DNA of 64,000 nt from Dehalococcoidia bacterium. GTDB taxonomy: Bacteria > Chloroflexota > Dehalococcoidia > Dehalococcoidales > W498. Numbering within the stretch: the first letter of the stretch is position 1; every line of letters starts with the position of its first letter. A model generated the notes under the pieces. That model was not told the origin of the DNA. It did no database searches and worked only from the letters and a program-made list of their open reading frames with translations. This document shows positions 1-9,997 of the stretch, piece by piece. The stretch lies in assembly GCA_011170285.1 (NCBI GenBank), contig DUEE01000016.1:1-64000 (forward strand), read 5' to 3'. A program made the translations under genes and the position numbers.

Positions 1-263
1 GGCAACTAGATCAAACTTGAATAAACCAACAAGACCCCAGTTAAGAGCACCCACCACTGCAAGTATTAAAGAAATAACTGCTATCACCTGCATTTGACTC
101 CTCCTTTCTTTTCTGGATTTATCAAGTGGTTATGAACCATAACTGTCCATTAGCAAGTTGTCAAGTATAAGTCTCTTCCAATACAAGATGAGCCTGAAGA
201 AGGTATTGATTTCTAAGGCAAGATGAGCCTTAGAAATTAGGGCAACTCGTTTATGATTAGGAC

Positions 264-978
264 ATGCTACTGATCATGAACGATGGACAATTACAGAAGG
301 TAGAACAAGTTAAAAAATTTCTGGAAGGGAGTAAGACACTAGAGTTCAGAGGTTTATCTGCTGAAGAAAAGTACAAATGGACAGAGACAGTGCTGGTCAG
401 GTTTAGCTATCTTAGGCTAAAGAAAGCTGAGAAAGGGGTGATACAGCAGTATATACAGAAAATTACGGGGTATTCCAGGGCACAGGTATCCAGACTGATA
501 AGAGAGTACAAACGGAAAGGATGGCTGAAGAAAACAGAATACAGAAGACACCGGTTCCCCAGGAAGTATATTCCATCAGAAGTTCAGTTATTAGCCAGAA
601 CAGATGAATTGCATGGGTGGTTAAGTGGTCCAGCCACCAAGAAGATTATGAAGCGAGAATACGAGGTTTATTGGCATTTGGAGTTCGAGAATATCTCCCG
701 GATATCTGTCTCCCATTTGTATAATCTACGAAAAAGCAACACTTATCGGGGCATGACCAGACGATTTAACAAAACAAGGCCTACTGTATCCAGCATTGGT
801 GAGCGGGCGAAACCAGACCCCAAGGGACAGCCGGGTTACATACGACTAGATACGGTTCATCAGGGGGATATCAACGGTTATAAAGGGGTATACCATATCA
901 ATGCCGTGGATGAGATTGTACAGTGGGAAATATTAGCCTCGGTGGAAAGGATATCGGAAGCTTACCTGGTGCCGGTAC
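264..978 (+). pseudogene. Truncated DDE integrase-core transposase
   Basis: N-terminal HTH-like region (QKITGYSRAQVSRLIREYKRKGWL) followed by integrase core (IRLDTVHQGD...GVYHINAVDEIVQWEILASVERISEAYLVPV); similarity stops abruptly near 975 before the expected final catalytic Glu region, then HGHHLFWVFL and stop. Confidence 0.75.
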
Positions 979-1392
979 ATGGTCACCATTTATTTTGGGT
1001 ATTCCTGTAAATGAAAAGGATATGGTCTCACCACATCTGCATCACGGCGCAGCTAATCGTCCACCTACCGGAATTATTATGACTAGTTTGAATGGATATA
1101 GAGACGGAATATCTGGTGATGGAACATTGTGGTTTATATCTACTGCAAATGAGGCTACACCTACGCAGAGTTACTATATATTGTGTCGTAAATTACCATC
1201 ATTATTGATTTTCGGTGTAGATGGAGGTCGTCAATACAAAGCAACTTTTTAGTATTTTGTTGACCGTGAATAAGTGCCTGATTGAAGGTCCACTTTGGAA
1301 TTCACTATAGATATGGTTTCTTACGATTACTGTCTAGTAAATGCTTGCCGAATATTTTTAGATCATCTGGCTATGACTCTTGAAAATTTAAA

Positions 1393-2472
1393 CTATACGC
1401 CATATCTATCTTCTAGATATTCACGCCATTCTTGATCATACCTGCCCTCTGAATCCAGCTGTTGCATTATCTGTTCGACAGTGACCTGACGTACTGGAAG
1501 AGCTTTCAGCAATATACGATTCCATAGGGTGATGATGTTATCATTCTCGGAAGAAACTAAGGGTTCCAAATCCGGTGGTACTTCAAGCAGGGCAGTATTA
1601 CCAGCGAACGAAATCAAGAGAACTTCGACGAAATCCGCCACGTGATTTTCTCTCAGGTAGGCAGCCAATATGCACTGCCGCATTATTTGATAGAGTGGAG
1701 TCCGGAAAGGGCAACCTGAAACTACACTTAATTTATCCAGTGAAATTCCCGATGTTTTCATGTGTTCCCAGTAACGGCGGGAATTACCCTCACGTTCAAT
1801 CGAAAGGGGACATATCAGGGCAGGATTCTCTCCCGATGAGAGATTAACTTGGTCGCAAGCGATCCTGTGTTGCTTTGATGAGTACATGCTGCACGATCCG
1901 AAATTCCTCTCGGTGTATTTCCATTCAACTAAAGAAATATTTCTTTTATTGTCTTTGTCTGTCCAGAATATTGCCGCATCAATACTTGTACGATTCTGGC
2001 CGCGCATTCCTTTAGTAGGTTCACCTAGCCACTCTGTGATGTCAGAGGGGCCGGTATATTCAAATTCGATATTGTCGATGGATTCGACGTTTGGCAGATA
2101 ATGGTTGAAGGCTGATTTTGCCAATACTAGATTCTGTTTCATAGGATACAGAATGTTAAAACAAGCTGCTTGTGAACTCTTCAGGTTCCTTACCCCAGAG
2201 TGAATTTTTATATTTTCCTTTGACAGGTAGCTGAACAGGTCTATCGCGATAGACTTATATATTGAAAGATATTCGCAACCAGCGGGTAGTATATGACAAT
2301 ATGAATGAGTCGGATTATTTGCATCCCGGCCGTCTGAGAGACCAGGCCAATGGGTGCGTTTAAACGAAACCTGTCTTTTTATGACTTCCTGTTCGAAAGG
2401 ATTCTGTCGGTAAAACCATCCTGTCTCGCCCTTCTCACCAGGCAACACGTGTTCAAACTGGCTCATATTCAC
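1393..2472 (-). CDS. PD-(D/E)XK nuclease-like protein (PGN_0703-type putative restriction endonuclease)
   Basis: 359 aa; motif TSIDAAIFWTDKDNKRNISLVEWKYTE fits D-Xn-ExK; 2 nt from the upstream gene. Confidence 0.55.
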   Translation of the reverse strand: MNMSQFEHVLPGEKGETGWFYRQNPFEQEVIKRQVSFKRTHWPGLSDGRDANNPTHSYCHILPAGCEYLSIYKSIAIDLFSYLSKENIKIHSGVRNLKSSQAACFNILYPMKQNLVLAKSAFNHYLPNVESIDNIEFEYTGPSDITEWLGEPTKGMRGQNRTSIDAAIFWTDKDNKRNISLVEWKYTERNFGSCSMYSSKQHRIACDQVNLSSGENPALICPLSIEREGNSRRYWEHMKTSGISLDKLSVVSGCPFRTPLYQIMRQCILAAYLRENHVADFVEVLLISFAGNTALLEVPPDLEPLVSSENDNIITLWNRILLKALPVRQVTVEQIMQQLDSEGRYDQEWREYLEDRYGV

Positions 2473-2474
2473 CT

Positions 2475-3392
2475 CTATTCAAATGGCTGTTTAAATATAT
2501 ATTTATTAGGCTTAGTTTTCTCGGGAATATAGAATTGACGGGTAGATTTCCCCTGATAAAAGCATCCATAGGCGATGTCTTTAAGGGCGTTATTCAATCG
2601 TTCTCTTTGCTGATTTATCCACTCTTGAGCACAATCACCAATCAACAGGATAGGTTTTTCCTCAAATGTAAAATAATCAAGTGCATCCAGGCATTTTAAT
2701 CCTGAAGGTAAGATACCCAGTTTTTTCTTAACTTGAAATACTCGTTGATAGTGTGAAAGCAGGACATTCTGATGGTCTTTGATAAAATCACTGTATTTCT
2801 CTAATTGTAGATCAATTTTGTTGTAGTTTGTGCTTTGCTTGCTTTTATCACTGATATATAACCTCTGGTCTCCAATGGTCTTTAACTCAACTGCAAACAA
2901 TGTCTTCGTGTCAACGTCAGCCCATATGAGATCAAATCTTATGCCGCTTGCATGCTGGAATTCAGTGTCGAGGAATTGATCGTTCTTCAATACGAAACTG
3001 GCTTGTATTCCTTTTTCTGATGATGGTGGATAAAACTTGGATATGCGTTTTTTGATTATCCTTAACTCGTTTTCAGAAAAATCCTGGAATTCCAGGATTT
3101 TAATAAGGTCATTATTAAGGCTTATGATATCCCAGGTAATATCTAAAGGTAGGTAGTCATTTTGACTCCGTAACGGAATGTATTCGAAATGAATTTGCCC
3201 TTTGAATTTGTTGGTAAACGAGAGATTCAGTAACCTCCCTCCGTTATAATACACGTCCAGGTAGTTATCTTTCCTGACCTCGATATATATATCCTTGTCG
3301 TTAACCAGATTCTGCCACCAGATAGGATTCCGATCCACAAGATTTTTAAACAGTTTGTGATTTGGGTCGAGTTTAGAAAAATACTTGCTCAA
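2475..3392 (-). CDS. PD-(D/E)XK nuclease-like hypothetical protein
   Basis: 305 aa; motif GIRFDLIWADVDTKTLFAVELKTIGDQRLY fits D-Xn-ExK; first gene of a two-gene operon. Confidence 0.5.
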   Translation of the reverse strand: MSKYFSKLDPNHKLFKNLVDRNPIWWQNLVNDKDIYIEVRKDNYLDVYYNGGRLLNLSFTNKFKGQIHFEYIPLRSQNDYLPLDITWDIISLNNDLIKILEFQDFSENELRIIKKRISKFYPPSSEKGIQASFVLKNDQFLDTEFQHASGIRFDLIWADVDTKTLFAVELKTIGDQRLYISDKSKQSTNYNKIDLQLEKYSDFIKDHQNVLLSHYQRVFQVKKKLGILPSGLKCLDALDYFTFEEKPILLIGDCAQEWINQQRERLNNALKDIAYGCFYQGKSTRQFYIPEKTKPNKYIFKQPFE

Positions 3393-3709
3393 AGATTATC
3401 TCCTTCATAATAATTATTAGTCTATGAATGTCAACTACGTATGTCAAATTAACCATAAGTCTTAGGTATTTGATAGAGGTAACAAAAAAGTAAATTGTGA
3501 TGCGAGGGGCACAAAAGTCCATCAAATTATTCAACCATTGCACGATATAGCGAAAAGTTCAATCCGAATACAATGCTTCTACTTCGCCTCCTTGCCGGAC
3601 GTATCAAGTCTGAATGGTTGACAGATGGCAGTGTTCACGTTATATTAGTGGCAATCTCAATTCAATAGATAATACTCAGTAGGTTTCACCGAGTCACGTG
3701 ACGAGGTTA

Positions 3710-3820
3710 GGTATGGCTAAATTGGTCTATGTGGCTGCTCCCTTATTCTCAGAAGCCGAGAGACAATTTCTCGAACTCATGGCCGATGCTCTTGCAAGGG
3801 CTTCGGGTCTTGTTCCACTC
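3710..3820 (+). pseudogene. N-terminal fragment of nucleoside 2-deoxyribosyltransferase-like protein
   Basis: MAKLVYVAAPLFSEAERQFLELMADALARASG resembles the start of the Nuc_deoxyrib_tr family; similarity then ends. Confidence 0.5.
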
Positions 3821-3891
3821 TCATATTTCCTCCTGCCGCATCGCGATGGAGGTGAGTTGGGGAAATGGCCCAGTAAAGGAGGAAGCATAGC

Positions 3892-6039
3892 ATGAAAAGA
3901 ATAGTTGTATTCTGTTTAGTGTCGCTATTCATATTGTTGCCAGCCTTGAGTTGCGGGCCCGCACCCGCACCTACCGAGATATTATGGGACACCTGGGGCG
4001 TGCCGCACATATACGCTGAGACTGAGGAGGACCTTTTCTATGCCTTAGGCTGGGCACAGATGCAGAATCATGGTAACTTAATACTGGAAAACTATGGCAA
4101 GTCACGCGGCTGCGCAGCCGAATACTGGGGCGAGCAATTCCTCGATTTAGATATGTATGTATGGACTATAGGTGCTCAGGTACTGGCCGCGAAGACTTAT
4201 CAGGAAGCTTCCAGCGAGGAACTCGCTGAGATTGATGCTTTTGCCGAAGGGATGAATGCCTACGCCGAAGCCCACCCGGACGAGATGGACGACCGCCTTG
4301 AAGTGGTGCTGCCCCTGAGTGGTCAGGATGTGCTGGCATACATCATGTACGCCGCCTATTTTGGAATTTATGTTCCGCCAGACATGATAGACGGCTTTCG
4401 TCAGCAATACCTGGGGAATGACCAGGCATCTGGCACTGAACAAGTGGTCTCACCGACTTCGAATGCCTGGGTAATAGGGCCGTCCAAGTCTAAGAGTGGC
4501 CACTCGCTTATGCTTTCCAATCCCCATGCACCATGGCCTAACCTACCGGGTCAGGAACATCTGATTTTCTACGAGGCCCACCTAGTGGGACCGGATGTGG
4601 ATATTTATGGGATTGGCTTGGTCGGCATTCCAGGACTTGGCTTCGGTTTTAACGATTTCAAGGGCTGGACCTTCACATCAGTCCCATTCGACGTCGTTGA
4701 TTTTTACGAGCTAACCCTGATTGAGGATGGGTACCTTTTTGACAGCGAGGTCAAACCCTTCGAGACCGAGTCCTACATTCTCAAGGTCAAGCAGGAGGAT
4801 GACACCATGCGGGAGGAACCCCTGGTGGTACGGCGCAGTATCCATGGCCCTGTCATCGTGGAGAAAGGGAACAAGGCGGTGGCGGTGCAATCACCTATAC
4901 CAACAGACCCTCTTAAAGACCAGTTCTGGAACATGGCTAAAGCCGATAACCTTGACGAATTTTTGACAGCGCTTGAGCCACAGGAAATTGGCCCAACTAA
5001 CATCCTCTACGCCGACAGCGAGGGGAACATCATGTACACCCTGGCAGGCATATTTCCCGACCGCCCTGAAGGCGATTACGACTGGAGCGGTGTGATTCGC
5101 GGCGACACCTCCGCCACGCTGTGGCGAGGCAAACTTCCCTATAGCGGTATGCCGAGGGTGATCAATCCCGAAACTGGCTATCTCCAAAACGCTAACGAAC
5201 CCCTGTGGACCATCACACTGCCAAGCGGTCTCGACCCAGCGGATTACCCTGCAGACTGGTTGGGTCTTAAGATGTACCCGCGCGCGGCGCGTTCCTTGGA
5301 GATGATTACAGCTAGAGACACCTTTAGCATGGAAGACATCATGGCCGACAAATTTTCTACTCATTCGCTGATAGCAGACCGCGTGCTGGATGACCTGATT
5401 GCCGCCACGGCTTATTCAGAAAGCGAACTGGTTAAGGAGGCTGCCGATGTGCTGGCTGCCTGGGACCGTTCTTTTGATGCCGATAGTTACGGCGCTGTGC
5501 TCTTTACCTTCTGGGCTATGCAGTACGAGCCCAACATACTGGGTAACGCCCTGCTTCCTGAGGAAGCCTACGCCGTACTTACTGACCCTACTCAGCCTTT
5601 CGATACACCGATGGGATTGGCTGACCCAGCTACTGCGGTGGCTGCGCTTGAGGCTGCTGCCTACATGGTGCAAGGAGCTTTCGGCTCAATGTACGTTCCA
5701 TGGGGTGAGTTCTTCCGTTTCCAACTGGGTGACCAGAACTTGTCTGGATTCGGCGTCGGCATCGGACCTGGCAACTTCGGCTCGTTTACTCCTAACGTCG
5801 CAATGCCGCAGGCGAATGGAACACTGGCCACGGTTTACGGCGATACCTGGGTTGCGGTAATCGAATTCTCTGACCCGGTGCGAGCGATGGCGGTAATGTC
5901 TTACGGCAACTCTACACAGCAGGACTCACCTCACCTTGGCGACCAGCTACCCCTGTATGCGAACAAAGAGTACCGCCCTATCTGGCGTACCCGCGCGGAT
6001 ATCGAAGCCCATCTGGAATCGCGCCAGGTGTTCGAGTAA
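3892..6039 (+). CDS. Penicillin acylase family protein, predicted lipoprotein
   Basis: 715 aa; signal peptide with LSCG lipobox; DTWGVPHIYAETEEDLFYALGWAQMQ and SNAWVIGPSKSKSGHSLMLSNPHAPW (Ntn-hydrolase Ser); SD aaaggagg upstream. Confidence 0.9.
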   Translation: MKRIVVFCLVSLFILLPALSCGPAPAPTEILWDTWGVPHIYAETEEDLFYALGWAQMQNHGNLILENYGKSRGCAAEYWGEQFLDLDMYVWTIGAQVLAAKTYQEASSEELAEIDAFAEGMNAYAEAHPDEMDDRLEVVLPLSGQDVLAYIMYAAYFGIYVPPDMIDGFRQQYLGNDQASGTEQVVSPTSNAWVIGPSKSKSGHSLMLSNPHAPWPNLPGQEHLIFYEAHLVGPDVDIYGIGLVGIPGLGFGFNDFKGWTFTSVPFDVVDFYELTLIEDGYLFDSEVKPFETESYILKVKQEDDTMREEPLVVRRSIHGPVIVEKGNKAVAVQSPIPTDPLKDQFWNMAKADNLDEFLTALEPQEIGPTNILYADSEGNIMYTLAGIFPDRPEGDYDWSGVIRGDTSATLWRGKLPYSGMPRVINPETGYLQNANEPLWTITLPSGLDPADYPADWLGLKMYPRAARSLEMITARDTFSMEDIMADKFSTHSLIADRVLDDLIAATAYSESELVKEAADVLAAWDRSFDADSYGAVLFTFWAMQYEPNILGNALLPEEAYAVLTDPTQPFDTPMGLADPATAVAALEAAAYMVQGAFGSMYVPWGEFFRFQLGDQNLSGFGVGIGPGNFGSFTPNVAMPQANGTLATVYGDTWVAVIEFSDPVRAMAVMSYGNSTQQDSPHLGDQLPLYANKEYRPIWRTRADIEAHLESRQVFE

Positions 6040-6164
6040 ACGAGAACCTTTATCCATAAGTGCGATGCACTTTGATAGGCACTCTTCGGTGAACAAAGTG
6101 GCGTTTTGTCACATTCTGATTTTTTAGTAATAACCTCACGGTTAGATGTATAATAACCGTTGAC

Positions 6165-6283
6165 ATGAACCAAGCCGCTGAAGCGCATACGGTTGCCGTT
6201 TCTGAGATAAGCAAGTCTTTTGATAATACCCTGGTAGTCGATAACATTTCCTTTGATGTAAGACATGGGGAGATATTTGGCAA
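6165..6283 (+). pseudogene. N-terminal fragment of an ABC transporter ATPase
   Basis: VSEISKSFDNTLVVDNISFDVRHGEIFG is typical of the ABC ATPase N-terminus, cut immediately before the expected Walker A. Confidence 0.7.
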
Positions 6284-6341
6284 TCATTTATATTTGTTGC
6301 AAATGAATCAGTATAGTCTCTTCAAGGAGAGTGAGGAACAA

Positions 6342-7214
6342 ATGGACAAAGAGAATAAGGGAATTGACACAAAGCAATATGTGCTTAAACTAAATCCTGC
6401 GTTGGCGGAAAGTCTAACACGCTTTTCACAACAAATGTCTCAAGCGACAAAGAATATAGGATTCGTACTACAATCTGTTGGGGAAACGTATAGCAAGTTT
6501 ATAGAGTCCATTAGTCCAGCACTGGCTAGGTTTGCTCTCCAATATCAAGAATATCTAAATCGCCAGAACCTATCTACTCCATTTATTGAGTACGGGCTTT
6601 GGCTCACCCCATCTATGACTCCTGCTCTTGTAAAGTCTGTCGTAGATAAATACGAACAAGGGAATAAGCAAGCTATTCCTGCTATAGTTGAGGGATTCTA
6701 TAGGCGTAATAATTATGAGAATCTGAGACGTGCTGTTAACGGGTGGAGTCATTACGAGTTTTTTTCACCAAGAATGCAAATATTTCGTGATGCTTTGGAT
6801 GCACATATAGCCCAACAATGGACATTGACTGTTCCAACTTTGTTACCCCATGTTGAGGGTATCGCAGGTGAAATACTCTTAGCAAACGGACTTCCCCTAA
6901 AAAACGATTCAATTGTCGTTGATAAAGGATATAAAACTTATCCTAGTTACTTGTACGGTAATATGGCATTGTCTAAAGTAACACCAACTATGGATGTTAT
7001 TATCAGCAGTCTACTTAGCTATTTAGAAGGGACTTTGTATGCCTATAGTAATTTTAAGGATTATCCCAAAATCAGGAGGTTACCAAAACTGAATAGGCAT
7101 GCGATACTGCATGGTTATCAGGTTAATTATGCAACGAGGCTCAATTCACTGCGATGTTTCCTAGCTTTGGATAGTCTTTCAATGCTGAAAGGTAACTTGC
7201 CCAAACTGGTGTAA
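6342..7214 (+). CDS. Hypothetical protein with candidate HEPN-type R-X4-H motif
   Basis: ORF track starts at 6165 but residues 1-39 are the ABC fragment; ATG 6303 or 6342 (aaggaga upstream) likely; C-terminal KLNRHAILHGYQVNYATRLNSLRCFLALDSLSML. Confidence 0.55.
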   Translation: MDKENKGIDTKQYVLKLNPALAESLTRFSQQMSQATKNIGFVLQSVGETYSKFIESISPALARFALQYQEYLNRQNLSTPFIEYGLWLTPSMTPALVKSVVDKYEQGNKQAIPAIVEGFYRRNNYENLRRAVNGWSHYEFFSPRMQIFRDALDAHIAQQWTLTVPTLLPHVEGIAGEILLANGLPLKNDSIVVDKGYKTYPSYLYGNMALSKVTPTMDVIISSLLSYLEGTLYAYSNFKDYPKIRRLPKLNRHAILHGYQVNYATRLNSLRCFLALDSLSMLKGNLPKLV

Positions 7215-7678
7215 TACAAACCGTGATTATGGTTATTATCCGTATTGGTGCGTGCTCTCCTATTCCTATTTGTCCTTACCCATAGGCAAATAACCAATAT
7301 AACCATTACCCCCATGTAATAGCTTAACATCAAAGCTCCACGTAGGGTAGAACATAGGCTGTATAGAAGCGTAAGGCACGTGTTCAGAGCAAATTCTGAG
7401 AAATACGTCCAGCGTGACTCTCAGTTCTCTGTCCAGCAGACCACTTTGCTTAATGTCCTAGACAGTTAAAGAAGAGCAAAAGTCCCCCACTTTTTACGCT
7501 CAGCTACTTTCACAGAATCCAAAATAAGAGGGCTGTTCTTTGTTACCTATGGTTTACTATTCATTTAATTTGTTAGGTTTAAAAGTGCCAGAAGAATAAC
7601 CCCTCAGATTTTGATTTAATTTAGACTATTACCCTTAAACATGGCAAAATAGTAAACAGAATCTTAATAGGAGGTATT

Positions 7679-7924
7679 ATGGATAATTCAGTAGCATTAT
7701 CTGTTGGAGACATTCATCGCCTGAGATTAGGCAAAGACCGTATTGTTTATGCTGGTATGCCAAACGAAAATGTTTTTTCTTTCGTTCAAATGAAATGGGA
7801 ATTCTTTTACCGAGGATATTCTTGGAATCTATATTTCCCCAAAGGTCAGAGCACAATAAGAATAGACGGAGTTAATATTCAAGTAGAAAGCGTTACTCCA
7901 GAAGAAATTAGATTGCGAGTATGA
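7679..7924 (+). CDS. Small hypothetical protein (81 aa)
   Basis: SD taggaggtatt before ATG; no recognised family. Confidence 0.5.
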   Translation: MDNSVALSVGDIHRLRLGKDRIVYAGMPNENVFSFVQMKWEFFYRGYSWNLYFPKGQSTIRIDGVNIQVESVTPEEIRLRV

Positions 7925-7957
7925 TGGCTGTTCAGCTTATACGCTTGGTGGGGTAAA

Positions 7958-8800
7958 TTAACTGTTATTTGAGTATAGCTCTAAAGCATCATCTTGAGAT
8001 AATTGCTCTGAATACTTCTCTCCCATAGCAATATTTTCCCAACCACCCAACGACTGCACAACTCTAGTTGATAATCCTCTTTTCAGTTGATAGATTGCAA
8101 ACCCACGCCTAAAACAATGTGCATTACAGGTGATACCTGTTTCTTGCTGTAATCTGGTCAACATTGTTTGTATACCACTTCGGTTTAGCTCAAACGTCTC
8201 ATGCTCGCTAAACCATTCTCTCAACATTTCCCCTGTTTCTTTGGTGAATGGTGCTTTTCTTTGCTTATTCCCCTTGCCGATTACCGTAACAGTTCCCCTA
8301 TCCCAATTAAAATCAGTATCTTTAATCCCCACAACTTCGGCTAATCTACACCCACTATCAAAAAGAAACCTTAAAAGACAAGCATCCCTGAGATTACTAA
8401 CGGAACGTATCAGAGTAACCAACTGGTCTTTTGTTATTGCGGGTAGTAGTTTCTTGCTTACCTTTGGTCTATCTACAAGAGTAATAGGATTCTTTAGTAT
8501 CTTCTTTGATTTGAATAACCAGTTACGAAATACCTTCATTGCTCGGTAATAACTGAATTTAGCATTACCACAATTGAGGTTCGTGAGCCAGTCATTGATT
8601 CCCTTTGGAGTTAGTTCAATATCTATAGCACGGTAAAGAATATCTCTGTAGAATTCGAGAGTTCGCATAGATAAACCCTGTCGTCTGCTGGCGAGGAATT
8701 CATCTATCCACTGTTGTTTTGCTTTTGGAGTGCCTAGCTGTAACCCACCAATAGTTAGAAATTCGGTGATTTCTTCGGGTTTCTCTTGAGAGTAAACCAT
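7958..8800 (-). CDS. Tyrosine recombinase / phage integrase family
   Basis: Catalytic-type motifs GCRLAEV, GKGNKQRKAPF, HCFRRGF, LGGWENIAMGEKY; the ORF-track start (8908) lies inside the tRNA gene, so ATG 8800 is preferred. Confidence 0.88.
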   Translation of the reverse strand: MVYSQEKPEEITEFLTIGGLQLGTPKAKQQWIDEFLASRRQGLSMRTLEFYRDILYRAIDIELTPKGINDWLTNLNCGNAKFSYYRAMKVFRNWLFKSKKILKNPITLVDRPKVSKKLLPAITKDQLVTLIRSVSNLRDACLLRFLFDSGCRLAEVVGIKDTDFNWDRGTVTVIGKGNKQRKAPFTKETGEMLREWFSEHETFELNRSGIQTMLTRLQQETGITCNAHCFRRGFAIYQLKRGLSTRVVQSLGGWENIAMGEKYSEQLSQDDALELYSNNS

Positions 8801-8851
8801 AGCTAAAATTTTGTTAACAAAATCATTAACAGAACTAGAGGATTTGAGTGT

Positions 8852-8924
8852 AGGCCGTACAGGTCTCGAACCTGTGACACCCTGATTAAAAGTCAGGTGC
8901 TCTGCCAACTGAGCTAACGGCCCA
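8852..8924 (-). tRNA. tRNA-Lys(TTT)
   Basis: Reverse complement GGGCCGTTAGCTCAGTTGGCAGAGCACCTGACTTTTAATCAGGGTGTCACAGGTTCGAGACCTGTACGGCCTA folds as a cloverleaf; anticodon loop CTTTTAA. Confidence 0.95.
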
Positions 8925-9208
8925 TATTTAGCTTTGGTGTGCAGTCAAGTTGGTCTTTCGAGGTTTCTGACACCCTGATTTTAGCAAATCGGTGGCAGCA
9001 ACACAAGCAAGCTATAAAAGAGCCAATTTCTTACCGAAACTAAGCCGCTTCCTAGTTAGTGGATTCAGCCAAGGGTTGATGGCAGGTAATTTATCTCCCA
9101 TCGGGATTGCTTCGGATCCAGAAAGATTTCACCTCAATGGGTTGGCTATAACCGATAGGATCCCAAGGTATAGTGATTATCCGCCATATAGAACACAGAA
9201 TTTTCAAA

Positions 9209-9997
9209 CTACTCCTGATTGCCGAAAGACCACATAGCCAGAATGGTCATAGCTACCCCAAACGCTGCCAGCACAGCAACATTATCCCAGATTGACATAG
9301 TATGCCCAAGCAGGTTGATGCCAAAAGGAGAGTCAGCCGATGCTCCCAGCATTACCTGGCGGATTGGGGCGACGCCGTAGGTAGCCGGATTTATCTTCAC
9401 CAAGATGCTCATCCATACAGGCAGATCCTGCAGGGGAAAGAATGCTCCAGATAGGAATACCATTGGAAACATCAGCAGTTGCATCACTGCTGTAAATGCC
9501 TCCATGGATCTGATGCGTGCTGCTAATAGGATGCCCAGCGAGCCCATGGAAGCAGCCAGCAGGAACATCAGCGGCAACAGTGCCAGCACTGTCCATACGG
9601 AAAGGGAGACACCAATCAGGGGAGCGAATATCAGGATTGCGATTCCCTGGAGCAGTGCCACTGTAGCCGCACCCAGTGTCTTCCCCATAGCTACTGAGGC
9701 ACGGCTGATTGGTGCCACTAGCACTTCTTTCAGGAAGCCAAGCTCTCGGTCCCAGACCACAGATATCCCAGCCGAAAACGAGCTCATAAGCACTGTCATT
9801 CCAATAATACCGGGGAACATGAACTGGGCGAAATCCACTCCAGGGACAAGGAAGCCCATCCTAGTACTGAGACCACTGCCAAACACGAACAGAAATAGTA
9901 GAGGGAAGATTAGGGAGCCAATCATACGCATCTTGTCATGCCAGAAACGAAGCAAATCGCGGTACCAGATGATGTACACTCCACGCAGATTATTCAT
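9209..9997 (-). CDS. ABC-2 type transporter permease (DrrB-like)
   Basis: 262 aa multi-TM; RDLLRFWHDKMRMIGSLIFPLLFLFVFGSG; paired with adjacent ATPase. Confidence 0.88.
   Translation of the reverse strand: MNNLRGVYIIWYRDLLRFWHDKMRMIGSLIFPLLFLFVFGSGLSTRMGFLVPGVDFAQFMFPGIIGMTVLMSSFSAGISVVWDRELGFLKEVLVAPISRASVAMGKTLGAATVALLQGIAILIFAPLIGVSLSVWTVLALLPLMFLLAASMGSLGILLAARIRSMEAFTAVMQLLMFPMVFLSGAFFPLQDLPVWMSILVKINPATYGVAPIRQVMLGASADSPFGINLLGHTMSIWDNVAVLAAFGVAMTILAMWSFGNQE

What the first reader, a model, noticed from the sequence alone, without database searches (positions are those of the whole stretch)
1393..3392. Two back-to-back PD-(D/E)XK nuclease-like genes without a methyltransferase: candidate defence operon
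The genes at 2475-3392 and 1393-2472 are 2 nt apart on the minus strand, and each has a plausible D-Xn-ExK core (FDLIWADVDTKTLFAVELK; SIDAAIFWTDKDNKRNISLVEWK). No methyltransferase, specificity subunit or helicase is adjacent. They sit between a truncated transposase and a penicillin acylase in the patch near the tRNA-Lys integrase. The second resembles PGN_0703-type putative restriction endonucleases; the first has no family I can name. They could be a two-component nuclease system that discriminates self from non-self by something other than a partner methylase.
Basis: partly seen in the sequence, partly recalled or inferred. Interest (0 to 1): 0.7.

Follow-up and report, generated by a model that had tools for sequence, protein, structure and literature searches.

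The report
Paired nuclease genes, likely phage defence
Two tightly coupled bacterial genes encode two unrelated DNA-cutting enzymes, one a known candidate antiviral nuclease and the other from a family no library names, and distant versions of the pair lie side by side or fused into one protein in three bacterial phyla, so they probably work together as a two-part defence nuclease.

Summary
Two minus-strand ORFs (3392-2475, 305 aa; 2472-1393, 359 aa) form one operon with good ribosome-binding sites. P0002 is a REase-ARP nuclease (PF22558, E=1.2e-36) with a complete D-ExK site. Its model (pLDDT 92) has the expected core order, but no structure library gave a significant match. REase-ARP was described in 2022 as a candidate effector of ADP-ribosylglycohydrolase-centred systems. 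P0001 has no family in Pfam, NCBIfam, PADLOC or PHROGs. Its nearest intact relative is 46% identical in another phylum, and profile comparison joins it to an unnamed NucS-like PD-(D/E)XK family. Members of that family lie beside REase-ARP in Chloroflexota and Actinomycetota and are fused N-terminally to it in Nocardioides and Prevotella: the best evidence that the two nucleases cooperate. The pairing is not obligatory: P0002's two closest relatives lack the partner, and P0001's closest lies elsewhere in a defence-type cluster. The genome holds three N6/N4 methyltransferases, so a methylase acting in trans is not excluded. Best reading: a two-nuclease restriction-type defence unit with unknown target rule, a new variant of a known kind. 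P0001's own structure prediction failed (pLDDT 41), and nothing was tested experimentally.

The parts
2475..3392 (-). P0001, 305 aa: unnamed family, N-terminal beta-rich region plus NucS-like PD-(D/E)XK core (E126, Q130, D154, E169-x-K171)
   Evidence: no family; conserved residues; profile-profile homology and controls
1393..2472 (-). P0002, REase-ARP family PD-(D/E)XK nuclease, up to 359 aa (likely ATG start at 2466)
   Evidence: (PF22558 1.2e-36; PF20796 2.1e-21)
3395..3434 (-). candidate promoter (TTGACA-16-TATTAT, 11 of 12) and ribosome-binding site upstream of P0001
   Evidence: promoter matches in the region are about as frequent as in shuffles, so weak
2467..2475 (-). junction: P0001 stop codon TAG overlapping/followed by the AGAGGTG ribosome-binding site of P0002, suggesting translational coupling

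Best explanation
A probably horizontally acquired two-gene unit encoding two different PD-(D/E)XK nucleases that act together as a two-subunit restriction-type defence nuclease. Shown: operon structure, complete catalytic motifs in both, family membership of P0002, homology of P0001 to proteins adjacent to or fused with REase-ARP in three phyla. Inferred: the subunits form a hetero-oligomer on DNA, each active site cutting one strand or one subunit contributing target recognition, with invading DNA recognised by its modification state or by an unknown signal rather than through an adjacent methylase.
For: P0002: PF22558 E=1.2e-36 and PF20796 2.1e-21; model pLDDT 92 with helix 100-113, strands 129-139, 164-172, 177-185, helix 260-275, strand 281-288, i.e. 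alpha-beta-beta-beta-alpha-beta order with D165, E183, K185 on the core strands; 15 residues invariant in 68 sequences. P0001: 46% orthologue in another phylum keeping EKGIQ, DTEF, RxDL and VELKTIGD; P0001+orthologue vs solitary and Prevotella N-terminal domains, HHalign probability 97.5%; whole core family vs Chloroflexota/actinobacterial partners 94.5%; partners vs NucS_C-type proteins 95.1%, core vs the same 63%; 0 of 40 column-shuffled controls reached any of these scores. Association: the same family is fused N-terminal to REase-ARP in L082, L089 (Nocardioides) and L091, L102, L103 (Prevotella), and adjacent in L074, L094, L096, L105 (Actinomycetota) and in five Chloroflexota genomes (L027, L028, L029, L030, L033). 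Defence context of P0001 relatives: Mrr type IV enzyme, ATPase and toxin-antitoxin-like genes near the orthologue; GmrSD_N and C5-methyltransferase genes near a degraded copy. The genes lie in a stretch of 40-41% GC against about 47% elsewhere in the window.
Against: P0002's closest relatives (44-45% identity, L034, L035) have no P0001-like neighbour and most REase-ARP genes surveyed are without this partner. P0001's closest orthologue lies next to a metallo-beta-lactamase-fold gene, not REase-ARP. P0001's structure prediction failed (pLDDT 41) and P0002 has no significant match in PDB or BFVD. Neither protein matches a PADLOC model. No biochemical data.
Confidence: 0.5

Rival explanations
1. 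P0002 is a self-sufficient REase-ARP effector nuclease, and P0001 is an independent nuclease that happens to share its operon in this defence patch.
For: Most REase-ARP loci lack the partner, including P0002's two closest relatives; P0001's closest orthologue and three solitary relatives (L121, L122, L147) are not next to REase-ARP.
Against: Fusions in two phyla and repeated adjacency, in both gene orders, are hard to explain without functional coupling; apparent translational coupling here.
Confidence: 0.25
2. Restriction arm of a restriction-modification system whose methyltransferase is encoded elsewhere in the genome.
For: Three N6_N4 methyltransferases over cut-off elsewhere in this genome; alphaproteobacterial REase-ARP genes (L095, L100, L107, L108) lie beside a DPPY methyltransferase of about 1000 aa, one confirmed as PF01555.
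Against: No methyltransferase adjacent here, and the motif scan found none beside the paired or fused versions. The three methyltransferases were not tied to this pair.
Confidence: 0.12
3. Effector of an ADP-ribosylglycohydrolase-centred system that reverses or senses phage ADP-ribosylation, as proposed for REase-ARP.
For: REase-ARP was defined in such systems (PMC9503650, section 3.8; identity of the Pfam family with that REase is inferred from its name). ADP-ribosylglycohydrolase genes lie near paired versions L027 (Pfam-confirmed) and, by sequence motif, L028 and L074.
Against: No ADP-ribosylglycohydrolase (PF03747) in this genome, though the assembly is only 88% complete; none in the two-gene locus.
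Confidence: 0.08
4. A DNA repair or mismatch-processing nuclease pair rather than a defence system.
For: The P0001 family resembles NucS_C at the core; in Dehalococcoidia several REase-ARP genes directly follow what looks like uvrB (L036, L037, L041).
Against: Very patchy distribution (P0001: one intact copy plus one degraded copy in 393 same-class genomes), spread across phyla, and neighbours typical of defence islands.
Confidence: 0.05

Closest known systems
REase-ARP (Pfam PF22558), the rapidly evolving REase of ARG-centred systems (Iyer et al. 2022, PMC9503650)
   Same: P0002 is a full member by sequence with all conserved residues
   Different: no ARG, phosphatase, chaperone or regulator gene here; paired instead with a second, unnamed nuclease
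NucS C-terminal domain (PF01939) and related PD-(D/E)XK nucleases
   Same: P0001 family shares the helix glutamate, the D strand and ExK arrangement; profile similarity 63% (P0001 core) to 95% (partners)
   Different: P0001 itself has no NucS_C match in Pfam; different N-terminal and C-terminal parts; paired or fused with REase-ARP
Heterodimeric restriction enzymes such as BbvCI and BspD6I (from own knowledge)
   Same: two different subunits, each able to carry an active site, encoded together
   Different: those have cognate methyltransferases and no sequence relation was found; only the mode of action is compared
GmrSD and Mrr type IV (modification-dependent) restriction
   Same: no cognate methylase; GmrSD_N genes lie next to some REase-ARP genes and an Mrr gene near a P0001 orthologue
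   Different: neither P0001 nor P0002 belongs to these families; modification dependence untested

Membership tests
REase-ARP (PF22558) | whole-protein score above the curated cut-off | tested here: met
   127.1 bits against 27
REase-ARP (PF22558) | conserved D-ExK catalytic residues and family-wide invariant positions | tested here: met
   D165, E183, K185, E188, Q262, R265 and others 68 of 68
REase-ARP (PF22558) | PD-(D/E)XK fold | tested here: inconclusive
   confident model with the right order of core elements, but no significant PDB or BFVD match; top PDB rank is MspI, E 0.57
ARG-centred (ADP-ribosylglycohydrolase) conflict system | ADP-ribosylglycohydrolase in the system | tested here: not met
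   none in own genome, 88% complete
PD-(D/E)XK superfamily (P0001) | E...D...ExK motif conserved in the family | tested here: met
   E126, D154, E169, K171 across P0001 family alignments
PD-(D/E)XK superfamily (P0001) | predicted PD-(D/E)XK fold | tested here: inconclusive
   pLDDT 41; profile match of the family to NucS_C-type proteins 63-95%
NucS endonuclease | match to NucS_C (PF01939) | tested here: not met
   no NucS_C match for P0001 in Pfam
Type II restriction-modification system | adjacent cognate methyltransferase | tested here: not met
   none adjacent; three N6_N4 methyltransferases elsewhere in the genome
Type IV (modification-dependent) restriction | cleaves only modified DNA | not testable with these tools
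   needs biochemistry
PGN_0703-type putative restriction endonuclease | match to the NCBI-named family | tested here: inconclusive
   no NCBIfam match, no paper in the library; the name may be held outside NCBIfam
PADLOC-listed defence system | match to a PADLOC model | tested here: not met
   no match at E up to 1

The most novel reading that the evidence does not exclude
An undescribed two-nuclease restriction system (NucS-like P0001 family plus REase-ARP, as separate subunits or one fused protein) spread over at least three phyla, which attacks foreign DNA without a dedicated partner methylase.
Probability: 0.3. Interest if true: 0.7.

Novelty: new variant of a known kind. Interest (0 to 1): 0.5.

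Why it matters
It names a partner for a nuclease family that has only been a computational effector candidate, and gives a testable architecture: two distinct active sites, found as two genes and as natural fusions. The fusions and the small two-gene form make it practical to test in a laboratory strain whether REase-ARP acts in defence and how it avoids self-cleavage. The P0001 family itself is missing from Pfam, NCBIfam, PADLOC and PHROGs.

Tried and rejected
P0001 alone found nothing by tblastn in viral contigs, plasmids, phages or the species genome collection. REase-ARP and P0001-family queries found nothing in viral contigs, so there is no sign of phage carriage. P0001's close family was not found in 299 genomes of the phylum of P0002's closest relative beyond one weak partial match. 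AlphaFold of P0001 with 8 rows failed; no fold search was run on it. An alignment of the fused protein with single-domain rows was dropped because the N-terminal fragments aligned to the wrong half. PDB sequence searches gave no credible relative. The idea that P0001 and P0002 are duplicates of each other was not supported: profile probability 1.9%. No attachment-site repeat was found in 1-9300.

Full report
What is there. Two minus-strand ORFs lie at 3392-2475 (P0001, 305 aa) and 2472-1393 (P0002, 359 aa). P0001's TTG start follows GAAGGAGAT at a good distance. P0002's likely start is ATG 2466, preceded by AGAGGTG that begins at the end of P0001's stop codon. That suggests one transcript and coupled translation. 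The pair has 40-41% GC, lower than the 47% typical of the window. It sits 5 kb from an integrase that overlaps a tRNA-Lys gene, and the window begins at a contig end. Small single-contig genomes in the same order suggest a Dehalococcoidales-like host (my inference; no name is given).

P0002. It matches REase-ARP (PF22558, 127 bits, cut-off 27) and PDDEXK_13 (PF20796). In 68 sequences, S100, N106, E138, E151, R157, G158, T162, D165, E183, K185, E188, Y234, Y261, Q262 and R265 never vary. The AlphaFold model has mean pLDDT 92. Its secondary-structure order fits the PD-(D/E)XK core, with D165, E183 and K185 on the core strands. Foldseek gave no significant match; the first two PDB ranks are the restriction enzymes MspI and EcoO109I, at E 0.57-0.65, so this is only a hint. 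I take REase-ARP to be the 'previously unknown rapidly evolving REase' of ADP-ribosylglycohydrolase-centred systems in PMC9503650 section 3.8; equating the Pfam name with that domain is my inference. No ADP-ribosylglycohydrolase was found in this genome.

P0001. No family in Pfam, NCBIfam, PADLOC or PHROGs matches. In 393 genomes of its class there is one intact copy (here) and one decayed C-terminal remnant. A 46% identical protein lies in a small-genome member of another phylum, reached by sampling around a Nocardioides genome. Solitary relatives occur in three Chloroflexota genomes.

Link between P0001 and the REase-ARP partners. Among about 95 REase-ARP loci, a second protein is adjacent or fused in 14 loci outside the window: five Chloroflexota (L027, L028, L029, L030, L033), four Actinomycetota (L074, L094, L096, L105), and five fusions (L082, L089, L091, L102, L103; the last two are from one genome). 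Direct comparison with P0001 alone was weak (E 0.2, best non-member). With the orthologue and solitary relatives the relation became firm: P0001+orthologue versus solitary+Prevotella domains 97.5%; that whole group versus the Chloroflexota/actinobacterial partners 94.5% over 209 columns. None of 40 column-shuffled controls came near. One caution: the solitary relatives were found with a profile that included P0001, so the test is not fully independent. The orthologue was found with the same profile, but its 46% identity over the whole length speaks for itself.

Nuclease nature of P0001. The family keeps a helix glutamate (E126), D154 and E169-x-K171. Three of the weak matches of its profile elsewhere were scanned and are NucS_C proteins. 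Profile comparison with such proteins gives 63% for the P0001 group and 95% for the partners. The structure prediction of P0001 failed. I put PD-(D/E)XK for P0001 at about 0.85.

Context elsewhere. The P0001 orthologue's contig carries an Mrr type IV enzyme, an ORC-CDC6-like ATPase, toxin-antitoxin-like genes (by eye) and a metallo-beta-lactamase-fold gene 5 bp away; the remnant lies near a GmrSD_N gene and a C5 methyltransferase. REase-ARP itself is modular: beside GmrSD_N genes, beside an N6/N4 methyltransferase in Alphaproteobacteria, beside what looks like uvrB in Dehalococcoidia, or alone.

Reading. The repeated adjacency and the fusions make cooperation the best explanation (0.5). Against it stand P0002's partner-free closest relatives and P0001's different neighbours in its closest orthologue. 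How self DNA is spared is unknown; three N6/N4 methyltransferases elsewhere in the genome mean that a methylase in trans remains possible.

Noticed in passing
L036, L037, L041 (around the REase-ARP gene): In several Dehalococcoidia genomes a REase-ARP gene directly follows or overlaps uvrB (identified by eye from sequence), suggesting a repair link in that lineage.
   Followed up: no
L095, L100, L107, L108: Alphaproteobacterial REase-ARP genes lie in a cluster with a ~1000-aa DPPY methyltransferase and mostly a GmrSD_N protein; looks like a separate multi-gene restriction system.
   Followed up: partly
L157:4236-7744: Cluster of a metallo-beta-lactamase-fold protein, the P0001 orthologue, a zinc-ribbon protein and an unnamed 259-aa protein (YFGDSRDYFKYDL); a similar-looking unnamed protein (YVGDIGDFYKFGL, L032:9518-10372) lies beside the P0001 remnant in another phylum.
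   Followed up: partly
L121:1498-2355, L122:1498-2355, L147:8768-9649: Solitary P0001-like proteins with no Pfam family (tested for L121 and L122) and no REase-ARP neighbour; an uncharacterised nuclease-like family of its own.
   Followed up: partly
window 3892-6039: Penicillin amidase-family gene (PF01804) with 52-57% GC between AT-rich neighbours, so probably of separate origin.
   Followed up: no
window 264-1252: ORF of 248 aa with helix-turn-helix and only a weak IS630 match, apparently a truncated transposase, followed by an overlapping 109-aa frame of unclear nature.
   Followed up: no
window 6165-7214: 349-aa ORF without a Pfam match between the acylase and the integrase.
   Followed up: no
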